Assembly (NCBI GenBank): GCA_046759145.1
Contig: JBHIBR010000070.1
Coordinates: 1 to 7,815, forward strand
Direction of reading: 5' to 3'
Length of the DNA stretch: 7,815 bases
DNA from: JBHIBR01 sp046759145 [NCBI: Nitrospinota bacterium]
GTDB taxonomy: Bacteria; UBA8248
In this document: positions 360 through 7,815 of the stretch, piece after piece
Layout: each line of letters starts with the position of its first letter
How positions within the stretch are numbered: the first letter of the stretch is position 1
Notes under the pieces: model-generated
What the model was told of the DNA's origin: nothing
What the model saw: the letters and a program-made list of their open reading frames with translations, nothing else
Databases searched by the model: none
Position numbers and translations under genes: made by a program

Positions 360-2429
<2,070 letters not shown>

Positions 2430-2560
2430 GGGCTCCCCTCCCCCGGCCGAAACTCCGGGCGGAGGCCGAGGCCAATTTCTCTCCTTCGCGGGCGCGTCGC
2501 CCCCATGTGGCCTCTTTCATGCGCGGGCGCTCGGGAGGGCCGGGAAGGAATGCGGCCCCT

Positions 2561-3034
2561 TTAGTTTGCCGGCTCCGCCTTCTTCTCTTGGGAGCGGCGG
2601 ACGAGCCGGTCGTAGTCCTTGGGGACTTCCTTCCCTTCTTTCACCATCTCTTCGAACTTGGAGGGGCACGCCACCATCAGGTTCGTGGCCTGGAAGACGC
2701 CATCCTCCCCCACCTTCCCCTCGGCGATGACGTTCACCCCGTCCCTTCCGATGAGGTCGGGGGCGACCCCCCGGAAGTAGACGGGAAGCTCCCCCTTTTC
2801 GCCCCGCAGGCGGAAGGAGAGCTCCATGGTGGCCTTGTTGCGCCGCAGGCTCCCCTCGGCCACCTTGCCCGAGATGCGGAGCCCCTGGCCGGCCCACTGG
2901 GGCGCCTGGGCGACGAGCTCGTCCACGGTGAGGAAGTAGACGAAGTTCCCCTGGAAGCCCGAGATGCCCAGGTAGAGGAAGGTGGCCGCGATGACCAGCC
3001 CGCCGATGAGGAGTTTGACCCGCTTGTGTCTCAT
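2561..3034 (-). CDS. ccmE: Periplasmic haem chaperone CcmE, Cys-type variant
   Basis: 157 residues, the usual CcmE size. It has a short basic N-terminus, one signal anchor (about residues 8-24) and a beta-barrel OB-fold domain (about 33-125; for example GLRISGKVAEGSL, PVYFRGVAPDL, VIAEGKVGEDGVFQATNLM). A charged, flexible C-terminus follows. CcmE accepts haem covalently and hands it to CcmF. Classical CcmE binds haem through His in HXXXY. Here the motif reads CPSKF at residues 123-127, so Cys123 replaces His and Phe127 replaces Tyr. Codons TGC and TTC were checked on the minus strand. Cys-type CcmE (CXXXY) is known from Desulfovibrio-like bacteria and archaea with a variant System I. The Phe is an additional change. 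The ATG is preceded by GCGGAGCC, a modest Shine-Dalgarno. It is first in an operon with ccmF and has a recognisable promoter upstream. Confidence 0.93.
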   Translation of the reverse strand: MRHKRVKLLIGGLVIAATFLYLGISGFQGNFVYFLTVDELVAQAPQWAGQGLRISGKVAEGSLRRNKATMELSFRLRGEKGELPVYFRGVAPDLIGRDGVNVIAEGKVGEDGVFQATNLMVACPSKFEEMVKEGKEVPKDYDRLVRRSQEKKAEPAN

Positions 3035-3073
3035 AGGCTCCGCGCCTGTCCCCCCCCGGCCGCCCTATCTCCT

Positions 3074-3102
3074 ACCATATCCGCCCGGGGGGCCCGTTTC
3101 AA
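3074..3102 (-). promoter_or_regulatory. Sigma70-like promoter for ccmE-ccmF
   Basis: On the minus strand a TTGAAA -35 box (3097-3102, five of six consensus bases) is followed after exactly 17 bp by a TATGGT -10 box (3074-3079, four of six). An A run (TTAAAAACGG) just upstream of the -35 could act as an UP element. Transcription would begin near 3067, about 33 bases before the ccmE start. The site is one of few AT-rich patches in this GC-rich DNA. The call rests on sequence pattern only. Confidence 0.5.
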
Positions 3103-3131
3103 GCCGTTTTTAAGACCCCTCCCTCCGGATC

Positions 3132-3185
3132 AACCCCGAAGGGTCTCTCGCGGGCGGAAAAAAAGCGGAGCGGCGAGCCTCCCCG
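3132..3185 (-). terminator. Possible weak terminator after ilvC
   Basis: Downstream of the ilvC stop on the minus strand a weak GGAG/CTCC stem precedes a run of seven T (A run at 3158-3164 on the plus strand). A further hairpin follows, GACCC-TTCG-GGGTT (3132-3145), with a stable UUCG tetraloop. Neither is a textbook intrinsic terminator: the first stem is short and the second has no T tract. Together they could slow or end ilvC transcription before the ccm promoter. Confidence 0.3.
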
Positions 3186-3207
3186 GCCCCCGCCCCGCCC
3201 GCGCGCC

Positions 3208-4236
<1,029 letters not shown>

Positions 4237-4318
4237 GGCTCTGCCTCCATGGGACCCTCCCCCCTGGGGGAGGACGCGCCGCAATGGGAGGAACCCGATG
4301 CCCTCGGAAAGACGCACC

Positions 4319-4348
4319 CTTGTACTTCCGGAAAAGAGGGGGTGTCAA
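4319..4348 (-). promoter_or_regulatory. Candidate ilvC promoter
   Basis: On the minus strand a perfect TTGACA -35 (4343-4348) is followed after 18 bp by TACAAG (4319-4324, four of six -10 consensus bases). This gives a leader of roughly 75 bases before the ilvC ATG. The -35 is formed by the left arm of the 4343-4364 palindrome. Confidence 0.45.
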
Positions 4349-4364
4349 GGCGCTCGCCTTGACA
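4343..4364. promoter_or_regulatory. Perfect 10-2-10 palindrome, possible operator shared by divergent promoters
   Basis: Arms TGTCAAGGCG (4343-4352) and CGCCTTGACA (4355-4364) are exact inverted repeats around a CT centre. The arms place TTGACA on each strand facing outward, toward ilvC and toward the substrate-binding protein gene. A dimeric regulator bound here would cover both -35 elements. No regulator gene is visible nearby, so the binding protein is unknown. An RNA hairpin is possible but there is no T tract on either side. Confidence 0.55.
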
Positions 4365-4387
4365 GGGAAGAGCCCCGCCGTTAGCCT
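4359..4387 (+). promoter_or_regulatory. Weak candidate promoter for the substrate-binding protein gene
   Basis: A perfect TTGACA -35 (4359-4364) is followed after 17 bp by TAGCCT (4382-4387), which matches only the TA and final T of the -10 consensus. The -35 is the right arm of the palindrome at 4343-4364. The poor -10 makes this tentative. Confidence 0.25.
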
Positions 4388-4422
4388 TGATGGGGCAGTA
4401 CCGGGAGGAGGGAGAGAGGACG

Positions 4423-5447
4423 ATGCCTCAAAGCTGGCGCGAGCTCCGCCATCACGTCGCGGCCTTCCTGGCAGCCCTCCTTTGGCTCCTCCCCCTCGGC
4501 GGGAGAGCCGCCGGGGCTGAGAAGGTGGCCCTCTCCCTCAACTGGATCCCGACCGGCATCCACGCACCCCTCTTCTTCGCGCGCGAGCGGGGTTACTGGT
4601 CCCGGGCGGGCCTGGAGGTACGGATTGAGTCGAGCCGGGGCTCTGGGGATGCCATCTCCAAGCTCGTGCGCAGGAAGGTCCACTTCGCCCTGGCCGAGAC
4701 GGCCGCCCTCATCGAGGGGCGAAGTCAGGGACAACCCCTCGTCGGGGTGTTCCTTCTCTTCGACCGAGGCCCAAGCGCCATCCTCGCCCTCGAGCGCTCT
4801 GGCATCCGCTCCCTGCGGGACCTCGCCGGCCGCACCATCGGAGCGCCCCGGGCCTCTTTCCCCCGGCTCCTCTTCCCCGACCTCGCCCAGGCGGCCGGCC
4901 TCGACCTCGGGCGGGTGAAGTGGAAGGATTTCCCCCCCCGGGAGCTCCTCCCTTCCCTTCTTGCGGGGATGTGGAGGCGGTGGCGAGCTACACCACCGTC
5001 GCTCCCCAGTACGAGCTGGCGGCCCGCAAGGCGGGACAGAAGCTCGTCAGCCTGCCTTATGCCGCGGCGGGTTTCGGCCCCTACGGACTCTCCCTCATCA
5101 CGCGCGACCTCGTCGTGATGGACCAAGCCGAGCTCGTGCGCCGCTTCGTGGAGGGGGCCGCCCGCGCGCTCGCAGACGCCCTCGTCCGCCCTGCGGAGGC
5201 GCTAAAGGTCTTCCTCGCCAAGAACCCCGCCCTGGGGAGGGAACGCGTTGCGGCCGAATGGCGGGAGGCCAGGAAGCTCATCGACACCCCCCGGGCCCGC
5301 CGCGTGGGGCTCGGCCGCTTCGAGGAGGGGGAGATGGCCGCTTTCCTCCGCCTCCTCACCCTCCGCCGGCGCCTCAAACCCATCGGGCAGGTCGGGGAGC
5401 TTTTCACCAACAGCTTCGTGCCCGGGGGGAAGAAGCGCCCGAAGTAG
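4423..5447 (+). pseudogene. NMT1/THI5-like ABC transporter substrate-binding protein, frameshifted
   Basis: The gene encodes about 341 residues if one base is restored, a normal length for this periplasmic family (ThiY, SsuA and TauA relatives). The N-terminus has a signal peptide: RHH, a hydrophobic run (AAFLAALLWLLPL), then a cleavage region GRAAGAEK. The mature part starts VALSLNWIPTGIHAPLFFA and continues with GYWSRAGLEV and SSRGSGDAI, which are family hallmarks of NMT1/THI5-type proteins. The first frame is sound up to LLPSLLAG at 4968. The second resumes as GDVEAVASYTTVAPQYELAA and runs to the stop at 5445-5447. The break lies in GGGG at 4965-4968, where five G would restore one frame. 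ATG 4423 has AGGAGG 11 bases upstream; ATG 4390 has no ribosome site. No permease or ATPase gene is adjacent, so the ligand (pyrimidine precursor, sulfonate or other) cannot be assigned. The frameshift could be a real mutation or a sequencing/assembly error. Confidence 0.85.
4965..4968 (+). other. Frameshift site in substrate-binding protein gene
   Basis: In CTT GCG GGG ATG, reading continues in the family-like frame only if the last G is read twice or a fifth G is added, giving GCG GGG GAT GTG (A-G-D-V). The product otherwise runs out of frame to a stop ending at 5118, with an Arg/Ser/Pro-rich tail typical of out-of-frame GC-rich DNA. Confidence 0.8.
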
Positions 5448-5539
5448 CCCTGGCCCGGAGTCCCCCTCAGCGCCCCTTGACCCTACCGAGCACTACCTCC
5501 CCGCTGACCTCGCCCTTCAGGACGGGCCGCTCGTTGAAG

Positions 5540-5662
5540 TCATTGCACTTGCGCCAGCGCAGCCTCCGCACGAGTCAGCCAGAACGGCATCTCCATAGAG
5601 CGGAATAGCTGAATGGCCGCGGAGAGTTCCGAGCGTGACTCCTCCGCCCGCCCCTTTCGGCC
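5540..5662 (-). pseudogene. Remnant of cyclase/ATPase C-terminal (TPR) tail
   Basis: Forty codons plus TGA (5540-5542) encode a peptide containing SELSAAIQLFRSMEMPFW and LTRAEAALAQ. This resembles the last TPR-like helices and C-terminus of class III cyclase/AAA-ATPase/TPR proteins, the family of the gene directly upstream. It is in the same reading frame as the upstream gene, 67 codons past that gene's stop, with no stop between. It has no ribosome site or good start of its own. The simplest reading is that it is the original 3' end of the cyclase gene, separated from its body when the rhodanese segment replaced the TPR region. Homology is judged from memory of the family pattern, not from an alignment. 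Confidence 0.55.
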
Positions 5663-5711
5663 TTCGGGGAGATTCCTTGCCCAATGCATATTCCAAGAGG
5701 GTTGCTCCGCC

Positions 5712-5726
5712 TCGCCAGTAAGGCGA
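5712..5726. repeat. Small inverted repeat just past the cyclase/rhodanese stop
   Basis: TCGCC-AGTAA-GGCGA forms a 5-bp stem with a 5-base loop, 14 bases downstream of the stop codon at 5741-5743. There is no T tract, so it is at best a weak 3' end structure for the minus-strand transcript. Confidence 0.25.
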
Positions 5727-5740
5727 ACCGTTGCGGTCGA

Positions 5741-6067
5741 TCAGTAGGTCCCCACGCTGGGGTCAACCTCCCGAGCCCAGGCGTCGATCCCCCCGCGAAG
5801 GTTCGAGACGCGCTCGAAGCCCCGCTCCTGCAGGAACTGGGTGACCAGGGCGCTGCGCTGGCCCACGTGGCAGAAGACGACGATGTGGGCCCCGTCGTCG
5901 AGCTCCACGGTTTTGGACGGGATGTCGCGCATCGGGATGTGGAGGGCCCCCGGGATCCGCGCGAGCGGAAGCTCCTCTGGCTCCCGCACGTCGAGGAGGA
6001 CGATCTCCTCTCCCCGGTCCAGACGATCCTTCAGCTCTTTAGGCGTGATCTCAAAAGGTTCAATTTC
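5741..6067 (-). other. Rhodanese (sulfurtransferase) domain fused to the cyclase/ATPase
   Basis: Residues 583-690 of the visible fusion protein. The sequence IEPFEITPKELKDRLDRGEE leads into VLLDVREPEE with D608 and R610, then ARIPGALHIPM, and the active-site loop CHVGQRS (648-654, Cys648). It closes with NLRGGIDAWAREVDPSVGTY, a normal single-domain rhodanese C-terminus. The catalytic Cys and the Arg of the loop are intact, so it may bind persulfide sulfur. No ATG, GTG or TTG start in frame is seen at its N-terminal edge, so it is probably made only as part of the fusion. The first codons (GAA ATT GAA CCT TTT GAG ... CCT AAA) have more A/T third positions than the flanking ATPase codons, which fits a separate origin. 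Confidence 0.85.
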
Positions 6068-7815
6068 ACGCCGCAAGTAGGTGAAGGCCTTGTCCCAGAC
6101 CCCGCCCCGGAAGGCGTGGAGTGCGAGTCGTTCGAGTTGGTCCGCCAGGCGGTGGCCAACCTGTGCCTCGAGGGCCTCCACGATGCGCGCATGGAGGGCG
6201 CGCCGCCGTTCGTGGAGGAGACTCCCGTAGGCTACCTCATGGGTGAGGGCGTGCTTGAAGGTATATTCAAGATCGGGGAAAAGGCTCGTCTCGTAGAGGA
6301 ACTCGGCGCCCTGTAGGTGCGTGAGGCCGCTGCGGAGCTCCTCCTCGGGCAGCTCGGCGATGGCGTGGAGGAGGGAGGAGGGCACATCTTTGCCGATGAC
6401 GGCGGCGGTCTGGAGGAGGCGCTTCTCCTCGGGTGGGAGCCGGTCGATCCGGGCGGCCAGGACCGCCTGGACCGTGGCCGGCACCCGAATGGTCGGGAGG
6501 GACTTCGCCGGACGATAGCTCCCCGGCTCGCCGGCCAGCGCCCCTGTCTCCACCAGGGTCCGGACGCTCTCCTCCAAAAAGAAGGGATTCCCCTCGGTCC
6601 GCTCAATCAAGAGCTGTTTGAGCGGCTCGAGGCTAGCGCCATCTCCCAGGAGGGCCCCGAGGAGTTCCTCGGCGCTCTCGGGCGGCAGGGGGTCGATCCG
6701 GAGCTGGGTGTAGTATGTCTTGCTCCCCCAGCTGTGCTGGTACTCAGGCCGGTAGTTGACGAGAAGGAGAAGACGCGCCGTCGCGAGGCTCTCGACCAGG
6801 CTGTCGAGGAGGGCCTGGGTCTCCGAATCGATCCAGTGGAGGTCCTCGAAAACCAGCAGCAGGGGCTGGACCTGGCTCTCCCGGAGCAGCAGGCGCTTTA
6901 CGGCGTCCAGGGTGCGCTGGCGGCGTCGGCGCGGATCGAGGGCTCCCCACTGCGGGTCCTCCACCGGCACCTCTAGGAGCGCGAGGAAGGCCGGGAGGAT
7001 CGGCTCCAGGGCCCTGTCCAGCGTGAGGAGCTTGCCGGTTGCCTTCTCGCAGATCCTTCGCGCATCGTCGCGATCCTCGATCTCGAAGTAGGATTTGAGG
7101 AGGTTGATGACGGGGAGGTAGGCGGTCGCCTTACCGTAAGAGACTGAGCCGCTTTCGAGCAAAAGCCACCCCTGGGTCCGATGTGAAATGGTGAACTCAA
7201 AGAAGAGGCGGGACTTGCCCACGCCGGCCTCCCCCACGGCTGCCACTACCTGGCCGTGGGCATCCCCCGCCTTCTCGAGCGCCCGTTGGAGATGGTCCAT
7301 CTCGGGGTCGCGGCCCACAAACCGGCTCAGCCCCCGGGCGGCCGCCACTTGTAGGCGCGTCCGCACGGGACCCGCGCCCGTCACTTCGTAGACCTCAACC
7401 GGCTCGGTCAACCCCTTCACAGGAATGGGCCCGAGGGGCTTGACCTGCACGAAGCCTTCGGCCAAGCGGAGGGCCTCCCCGGTGAGCAGGATCGACCCTG
7501 GCATCGCCATCTGTTCCATGCGCGCGGCCAGGTGCGTGGTCTGTCCGACCGCCGTGTAGTCCATGTGGAGGTCGCTGCCGATGGAGCGCACGACAACCTC
7601 GCCTGAGTTCAATCCCACCCGAATATGAATGGGAATGCCCTCAGTCCGTTGGACCTCTTGGGCATAGCCTTTCACTGACTCCTGCATCCGGAGCGCCGCG
7701 TAGCAGGCGCGCACGGCATGGTCCTCGTGGGCGAGCGGCGCGCCGAAGAGCGCCATGATCCCGTCCCCCATGACCTGGTTCACGGTCCCCTCGTAGCGGT
7801 GGACGGCCTCCATCA
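5741..7815 (-). CDS. Class III nucleotide cyclase - ATPase - rhodanese fusion protein (5' end outside window)
   Basis: 690 residues are visible; the N-terminus is cut by the right edge, so the apparent first Met is internal. Residues 1-145 are the C-terminal part of a class III adenylate/guanylate cyclase domain: VMGDGIMALFGAP with metal ligand D17, IRVGLNSGEVVV, then DYTAVGQTTHLAARMEQ. Residues about 164-580 are a STAND/AAA-type ATPase: FVGRDPEMD, Walker A GEAGVGKS (194-201), Walker B LLLVFEDLHWID (318-329), TEGNPFFLEE and FKHALTHEVAYGSLL. Family members normally continue into TPR repeats. Here, after DKAFTYLRR (about 574-582), the frame enters a whole rhodanese domain. The family is a signalling ATPase that probably makes cAMP; the first metal Asp lies outside the window, so activity cannot be confirmed. 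H94 stands where canonical cyclases have the transition-state Asn, while R98 is kept. The gene converges with the substrate-binding protein gene. Confidence 0.85.
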   Translation of the reverse strand, partial: MEAVHRYEGTVNQVMGDGIMALFGAPLAHEDHAVRACYAALRMQESVKGYAQEVQRTEGIPIHIRVGLNSGEVVVRSIGSDLHMDYTAVGQTTHLAARMEQMAMPGSILLTGEALRLAEGFVQVKPLGPIPVKGLTEPVEVYEVTGAGPVRTRLQVAAARGLSRFVGRDPEMDHLQRALEKAGDAHGQVVAAVGEAGVGKSRLFFEFTISHRTQGWLLLESGSVSYGKATAYLPVINLLKSYFEIEDRDDARRICEKATGKLLTLDRALEPILPAFLALLEVPVEDPQWGALDPRRRRQRTLDAVKRLLLRESQVQPLLLVFEDLHWIDSETQALLDSLVESLATARLLLLVNYRPEYQHSWGSKTYYTQLRIDPLPPESAEELLGALLGDGASLEPLKQLLIERTEGNPFFLEESVRTLVETGALAGEPGSYRPAKSLPTIRVPATVQAVLAARIDRLPPEEKRLLQTAAVIGKDVPSSLLHAIAELPEEELRSGLTHLQGAEFLYETSLFPDLEYTFKHALTHEVAYGSLLHERRRALHARIVEALEAQVGHRLADQLERLALHAFRGGVWDKAFTYLRREIEPFEITPKELKDRLDRGEEIVLLDVREPEELPLARIPGALHIPMRDIPSKTVELDDGAHIVVFCHVGQRSALVTQFLQERGFERVSNLRGGIDAWAREVDPSVGTY

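What the first reader, a model, noticed from the sequence alone, without database searches (positions are those of the whole stretch)
5741..7815. Rhodanese domain takes the place of the TPR region in a cyclase/STAND ATPase
Seen: one uninterrupted frame runs from the cyclase and ATPase modules directly into a complete rhodanese with intact CHVGQRS. The junction is near 6067, and codon usage becomes more AT-rich at third positions just past it. Known: such cyclase/ATPase proteins usually carry long C-terminal TPR arrays as the sensing part, and single-domain rhodaneses bind sulfane sulfur at Cys. Inference: the sensing module may have been exchanged for a sulfur-reactive one, giving a sulfur- or redox-responsive cyclase. 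Alternatively it is a chance fusion from a deletion or an assembly join.
Basis: partly seen in the sequence, partly recalled or inferred. Interest (0 to 1): 0.68.

Follow-up and report, generated by a model that had tools for sequence, protein, structure and literature searches.

The report
Rhodanese spliced into a cyclase gene
In this stretch of bacterial DNA a small sulfur-handling enzyme gene stands in place of most of the tail of a signalling-enzyme gene, with the last bit of the old tail left behind it; the change looks recent and is more likely a one-off accident than a proven new sulfur sensor.

Summary
One minus-strand frame (5741-7813, open at the window edge) encodes class III cyclase, AAA_16 ATPase and a complete rhodanese. 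Homology to 78 of 80 relatives ends at residues 573-585; 59 of 72 readable tails go on as ordinary TPR-type tails, and none of the 80 cyclase frames shows a rhodanese as far as its contig reaches.

New: DNA past the rhodanese stop (5659-5540, minus) is the 3' stub of a TPR cyclase: positions 380-417 of a 418-position tail profile (E 6.9e-11 over the six frames), matched by 37 of 72 relative tails. So the rhodanese lies inside a cyclase gene: about 410 bp in place of about 379 TPR codons. One false assembly join, or one deletion next to a rhodanese, would not by itself leave this stub.

The stub shows no clear decay, so the event looks young and an intact frame does not prove function. Stand-alone rhodanese orthologues (69-72%) occur in 3 of 18 genomes of the likely host phylum. 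No listed match covered both cyclase side and rhodanese domain in 808 genomes (limited sensitivity).

Best reading: a real, young, in-frame gene replacement. A sulfur-gated cyclase is possible but unsupported.

The parts
5741..7813 (-). fused open reading frame: cyclase (5' end beyond the window) - AAA_16 ATPase - stump of the first TPR - rhodanese
7385..7774 (-). class III nucleotide cyclase domain, residues 14-143, N-terminal part beyond the window edge; the position of the canonical transition-state Asn (recalled) is His (H94), as in 65 of the 69 relatives (of 78) in which my motif pattern matched
   Evidence: PF00211; motif count
6764..7324 (-). AAA_16 P-loop ATPase, residues 164-350, Walker A GEAGVGKS and Walker B LLLVFEDLHW present
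   Evidence: PF13191; motifs
6068..6079 (-). upstream junction, residues 579-582; homology to TPR cyclases ends here, in what is the first TPR hairpin of relatives (inference from position)
5744..6061 (-). complete MoeB/MoeZ-type single-domain rhodanese; where three stand-alone orthologues have an ATG start the window has ATT (6062-6064), and no ribosome-binding site is visible by eye upstream
   Evidence: confident fold
5852..5872 (-). rhodanese active-site stretch CHVGQRS (Cys648)
5660..5740 (-). 81-bp spacer after the rhodanese stop, matching neither the TPR profile nor a Pfam family above cut-off; probably the rhodanese gene's own 3' flank (inference)
5540..5659 (-). 3' stub of a TPR-cyclase gene, last 39 codons plus stop, in the same frame as the fused ORF
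   Evidence: tblastn and profile matches; frame

Best explanation
A rhodanese gene of the type resident in the likely host phylum, without its usual start codon, stands in place of about 1.1 kb of the TPR-coding part of a cyclase/ATPase/TPR gene. Shown by sequence: the upstream junction is in frame, the rhodanese keeps its own stop, and the last codons of a TPR cyclase still lie beyond it. Inferred: the event is young, happened once, and arose by illegitimate recombination. The gene now makes a cyclase-ATPase-rhodanese chain that has lost its TPR array. The rhodanese domain should fold and carry sulfur on its cysteine. The cyclase is most likely no longer properly regulated, so the product is probably a near-neutral or loss-of-function fusion rather than an evolved sensor.
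For: (1) Homology of 78 of 80 relatives ends at residues 573-585; 59 of 72 readable tails are 395-445 residues long and follow the tail profile from its start, and 8 of 10 tails scanned match TPR families. (2) The tail profile has one significant match in the six-frame window, 5659-5546, positions 380-417 of 418, E 6.9e-11. 37 of 72 tails match there at E<1e-3; top score 50.8 bits against at most 27.3 in 100 dinucleotide shuffles. (3) Stand-alone orthologous rhodaneses (69-72%) occur in G125, G135 and G127, and a 55% one in G136; in 24 genomes of cyclase relatives the best match is 54%. (4) The window's NMT1-KARI-CcmE-CcmF order is shared by five genomes of that phylum, so the rhodanese is of the host's own type. 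(5) The stub is about as similar to relatives (0.45-0.68 in the 14 best) as the ten best are to each other (0.37-0.61, one pair 0.92), hence young. (6) The rhodanese domain is modelled with high confidence.
Against: No reads, second strain or host genome were available, so neither the donor rhodanese nor an intact cyclase paralogue can be seen. The stub is short (39 codons); the 5' part and the stub could come from two different cyclase copies. The age argument leans towards youth because the relatives compared were those most similar to the stub, and against some (L006: 16, 14, 15 differences by codon position; L025: 14, 15, 19) there is little third-position bias. Both enzymatic parts are intact, which a maintained functional fusion would also show. 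Tails shortened from nearly the same junction in 4 of 72 relatives suggest the site tolerates remodelling.
Confidence: 0.6

Rival explanations
1. Functional sensor swap: the rhodanese acts as a sulfane-sulfur or redox sensor that gates the ATPase and cyclase.
For: Intact P-loop motifs and rhodanese cysteine; a single in-frame chain; junction at a site where tails are also remodelled in 4 of 72 relatives.
Against: The architecture was not seen in the relatives examined. The event looks young. The cyclase has His at the transition-state Asn position (recalled) in 65 of 69 relatives with the motif, so even the output is uncertain. The junction lies at the very start of the TPR tail but inside what looks like its first hairpin, not at a clean boundary (inference). 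The rhodanese is no more diverged than stand-alone orthologues.
Confidence: 0.12
2. Assembly artefact or chimeric contig.
For: The cyclase family is multi-copy in related genomes (18 matches in G078) and conserved, hence prone to misassembly; no reads available; the split NMT1 gene nearby could be a sequencing error.
Against: Two false joins about 410 bp apart would be needed, the second returning to the same gene family in the same orientation. No N in the window. Past the junction the window shares little with the relatives' codons printed, so a shared repeat at the join is not apparent.
Confidence: 0.1
3. The rhodanese is the part under selection: it uses the cyclase gene's expression and an N-terminal carrier, and the cyclase/ATPase is a passenger.
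For: The rhodanese is complete, the usual ATG position reads ATT and no ribosome-binding site is visible by eye, so it seems to depend on the upstream frame; its divergence is ordinary.
Against: The host may carry another copy (not testable); no expression data; the event looks young.
Confidence: 0.16

Closest known systems
Class III cyclase - AAA_16 ATPase - TPR proteins (annotated 'adenylate/guanylate cyclase domain-containing protein' in plasmid records)
   Same: the cyclase/ATPase part is 63-79% identical to the best 80 relatives; the last codons of such a gene remain downstream
   Different: about 379 tail residues are absent and a rhodanese follows instead
Stand-alone MoeB/MoeZ-type rhodanese of the likely host phylum (L139, L140, L141)
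   Same: 70-76% identity over 104-105 residues, CH(L/V)GQRS; best NCBIfam matches are parts of MoeB/MoeZ models, below their cut-offs
   Different: here it lacks an ATG at the usual start and is fused behind a cyclase/ATPase
Human soluble adenylyl cyclase ADCY10 (cyclase, P-loop and TPR-like parts: recalled)
   Same: weak cyclase match, E about 1.6e-6
   Different: no rhodanese; two cyclase domains (recalled)
TIGR03903 TOMM system kinase/cyclase fusion
   Same: best NCBIfam match, residues 5-570, 286.8 bits
   Different: far below the cut-off of 705.75

Membership tests
Class III nucleotide cyclase | cyclase homology domain | tested here: met
   PF00211 56.4 bits, cut-off 21.9; N-terminal part outside the window
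Class III nucleotide cyclase | canonical transition-state Asn (recalled) | tested here: not met
   His in the window and in 65 of the 69 relatives (of 78) in which my pattern matched
Cyclase-AAA_16-TPR family | P-loop ATPase with Walker A and B | tested here: met
   by the same patterns 74 and 52 of 78 relatives
Cyclase-AAA_16-TPR family | C-terminal TPR array of about 420 residues in the protein | tested here: not met
   only a 39-codon stub remains, beyond the stop codon
Single-domain rhodanese | full domain with catalytic Cys loop | tested here: met
   PF00581 profile 1-101 of 102; CHVGQRS; model block means 92-97 over fragment residues 31-120
Single-domain rhodanese | sulfurtransferase activity | not testable with these tools
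   needs assay
Sulfur-responsive cyclase (hypothetical) | cyclase or ATPase output changes with cysteine persulfidation | not testable with these tools
   needs assay
Sulfur-responsive cyclase (hypothetical) | architecture conserved in relatives | tested here: not met
   no listed match covers both sides in 18, 95, 398 and 297 genomes or in 80 loci; sensitivity limited as told in Tried and rejected
TIGR03903 TOMM kinase/cyclase | score above curated cut-off | tested here: not met
   286.8 against 705.75 bits

The most novel reading that the evidence does not exclude
A natural sensor-module swap caught soon after it happened: a sulfur-carrying rhodanese, put in frame in place of the TPR array of a cyclase/ATPase, now gates second-messenger output by sulfane sulfur or redox state.
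Probability: 0.1. Interest if true: 0.7.

Novelty: new variant of a known kind. Interest (0 to 1): 0.38.

Why it matters
If real, it is a readable case of domain replacement inside a signalling gene: both edges and the remains of the replaced module are still visible. It offers a testable chance that a sulfur carrier was wired to a second-messenger enzyme. It also shows that DNA downstream of an odd fusion should be checked for the stub of the lost domain before the fusion is called a chimera or a deletion.

Tried and rejected
Simple deletion bringing a downstream rhodanese up to the cyclase: rejected. A rhodanese search of the 80 relative loci (E limit 0.01) gave one weak match (25%, E 0.003), at 21-326 of L038, about 5.7 kb from its cyclase, and such a deletion leaves no TPR stub beyond the rhodanese.

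One-join assembly chimera: rejected as the main reading because of the stub.

Fusion conserved in relatives: sought in 18 genomes of the likely host phylum with the whole fused protein and with residues 479-690 in 95 genomes of the phylum of G004 and in even samples of 398 and 297 genomes of the phyla of G008 and G009. No listed match covers both the cyclase side and the rhodanese domain; the furthest runs past the junction reach residue 594 (G116) and fragment position 133, residue 611 (G088). Limits: E-value limits 1e-100, 1e-20, 1e-26 and 1e-28; at most 32, 7 and 10 candidates scored per genome; the list is cut (best first). A rare or remote fusion could be missed. Of the 475 relatives only the best 80 were kept.

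L057 (homology to residue 637): its tail is TPR. Plasmid hits: 30 of 769 records were listed; most end at residues 576-588, H16 and H24 reach 648 and 640 and were not opened.

Mobile-element signature: repeats in 5400-6300 are one 21-nt direct pair and nine short inverted pairs, among them one of 18 nt at 89% (5546-5563 with 5852-5869), none framing the insert; no promoter or terminator match there; the frames over spacer and stub gave no Pfam match above cut-off (best DUF5703, E 0.09).

AlphaFold of the whole chain: the rhodanese part is of low confidence (no alignment rows there); domain arrangement not interpreted. Alignments A1 and A2 misplaced the rhodaneses and were not used further; A3 and A4 replaced them.

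Viral contigs: two pattern hits, none a relative. Paper searches: in the listings and starts of abstracts shown I recognised no paper on a cyclase-rhodanese fusion; apart from these I saw only one reference-list passage of PMC2447327.

Full report
WHAT IS THERE. The minus-strand frame 7813-5741 (690 codons, stop TGA at 5741-5743) is open at the window's right edge, so the start of the protein lies outside; in the 25 relatives printed the stop-free frame extends 27-224 residues further upstream. Pfam finds Guanylate_cyc (residues 14-143), AAA_16 (164-350) and a full-length Rhodanese (590-681). The P-loop motifs GEAGVGKS and LLLVFEDLHW are present, and the rhodanese cysteine sits in an intact CHVGQRS stretch. 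A model of residues 560-690 made with 14 rhodanese relatives is confident over the rhodanese (block means 92-97 for fragment residues 31-120) but not over the first 22 residues of the fragment.

WHERE THE JUNCTION IS. The scan of the genome collection found 475 relatives, of which the best 80 were kept. In 78 of these 80 the homology ends at residues 573-585; L055 stops at its contig edge (540), and L057 reaches 637. Of 72 tails that could be read to a stop, 59 are 395-445 residues long and follow the tail profile from its start; 13 are odd. Ten tails, eight of them odd ones, were scanned by Pfam: eight match TPR families, L030 and L066 match none. No rhodanese was found in any of the 80 cyclase frames, as far as the contigs reach; eight tails run off their contig, five of them within 0-92 residues. 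At codon level the window follows the relatives printed through '...TAC TTG CGG' and then departs.

THE STUB. TPR tails of relatives match the minus strand of the 'intergenic' DNA at 5659-5546 with their extreme C-terminus. At E<1e-3, 37 of 72 tails match this region. The top score is 50.8 bits, against at most 27.3 bits over 100 dinucleotide shuffles. Against the whole window, 31 tail hits with E<1e-3 lie within the stub region and three more run from it into the rhodanese region; three weaker hits lie there and three elsewhere, all above 1e-3. A profile built from tails of 400-440 residues has one significant match in the six frames, positions 380-417 of 418 at 5659-5546, E 6.9e-11; the other two have E 1.3 and 3.2. 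The stub ends in its own stop (5540-5542) and is in the frame of the fused ORF. So the order on the minus strand is: 5' part of a TPR cyclase, rhodanese, 81 bp of other DNA, 3' end of a TPR cyclase. About 411 bp (6070-5660) stand where relatives have about 379 codons.

WHAT THIS EXCLUDES. A deletion that joined a cyclase to a neighbouring rhodanese, or one false join in assembly, would not by itself leave the last codons of a cyclase on the far side. Two false joins about 410 bp apart are possible but unlikely; the window has no N. The family is multi-copy (18 matches in G078), which is the main reason to keep an artefact at 10%. The 5' part and the stub could also come from two different copies.

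WHERE THE PARTS COME FROM. The window's CcmF is 62-64% identical to G108, G116 and G117 (partial matches: 67% in G106, 59% in G010) and at most 55% to the 88 of 95 genomes of the phylum of G004 that match. KARI is 71-74% in 16 of the 18 genomes of the phylum of G117. NMT1-KARI-CcmE-CcmF order is shared by five loci there. Named members of that phylum are titled Nitrospinota, Nitrospinae or just 'bacterium'. Rhodanese orthologues stand alone in G125, G135 and G127 (69-72%) and in G136 (55%); in 24 genomes of the cyclase relatives the best is 54%. The fused copy is 70-76% identical to the first three, which are 71-80% identical to one another, so it is not evolving unusually. These three have an ATG two codons before the conserved Pro-Phe; the window has ATT there, and by eye no ribosome-binding site. 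A native start further upstream, lost at the junction, is equally possible: L139 also has an ATG four codons earlier. The cyclase half is closer to the best relatives, several of them Rokubacteria or NC10-type MAGs and one titled Deltaproteobacteria (77-79%), than to the host phylum's nearest copies (66-70%, others 40-44%); it may have come by horizontal transfer (inference). GC3 is 0.92-0.96 in CcmF, CcmE and KARI, 0.85 in the cyclase part, and 0.63 then 0.92 in the rhodanese. The dip after the junction is real but not unique.

AGE. If the stub had been untranslated for long it should have decayed. Its identity to the 14 best of 45 placed tails is 0.45-0.68, while the ten best are 0.37-0.61 identical to each other (one close pair 0.92). 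Against the closest its differences are biased to third positions (10, 6, 17 against L020; 11, 6, 15 against L004), against L006 (16, 14, 15) they are not. The comparison favours the stub, because the relatives were chosen for similarity to it, and there are only 38 codons. It is suggestive of youth, not proof, and means that the intact fusion frame says little about selection.

HOW IT MOST LIKELY WORKS. Shown: one open frame and intact motifs. Inferred: the chain is translated as one protein, the rhodanese folds and can bind sulfane sulfur, and the cyclase/ATPase has lost the TPR array that in such proteins is thought to take the input (recalled). The family has His at the canonical transition-state Asn position in 65 of the 69 relatives (of 78) in which my pattern matched (the role is recalled), so even cyclase output is uncertain. 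The most economical reading is a young accident with a probably competent rhodanese and a disabled or deregulated cyclase. Four of 72 relatives (L018, L019, L024, L042) lack the first 84-87 positions of the tail profile from nearly the same junction, so this site tolerates remodelling; that is the best argument for the sensor-swap idea.

SEARCH FOR RELATIVES OF THE FUSION. No listed match covered both the cyclase side and the rhodanese domain in 18 genomes of the host phylum (whole fused protein), 95 of the phylum of G004, 398 of that of G008 or 297 of that of G009; the longest overruns reach residues 594 and 611. Viral contigs gave no relative. Of 769 plasmid records 30 were listed; most end at residues 576-588, two reach 640 and 648 and were not opened. 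Paper searches (listings and starts of abstracts only) showed no cyclase-rhodanese fusion that I recognised.

Noticed in passing
4423-5447 (+), break near 4960-4980: NMT1/THI5-like binding protein gene is split over two frames (profile 4-138, then 140-216) while a relative (L157) has it in one 368-residue frame: a young pseudogene or a single-base sequencing error.
   Followed up: partly
360-5447: NMT1, KARI, CcmE and CcmF are in the same order in five genomes of the likely host phylum (L153-L157).
   Followed up: partly
L018, L019, L024, L042: TPR tails of four of 72 relatives lack about the first 85 profile positions, from nearly the same junction as the rhodanese fusion: a natural remodelling point of this family.
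   Followed up: partly
L142:9529-11674: The more distant rhodanese orthologue (55%) lies on the same strand directly after a ThiC gene, a hint of a role near thiamine synthesis.
   Followed up: no
L139:5985-7199 and L141:10188-11381: Two other rhodanese orthologues lie within 3 kb of similar 4Fe-4S, reductive-dehalogenase-like genes.
   Followed up: no
H94 of the fused ORF and relatives: The canonical cyclase transition-state Asn (recalled) is His in 65 of 69 relatives with the motif; cyclase activity of this expanded family deserves a test.
   Followed up: partly
L030, L066 tails: Tails that leave the TPR profile early and have no Pfam match; possibly frameshifts or other C-terminal modules.
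   Followed up: no
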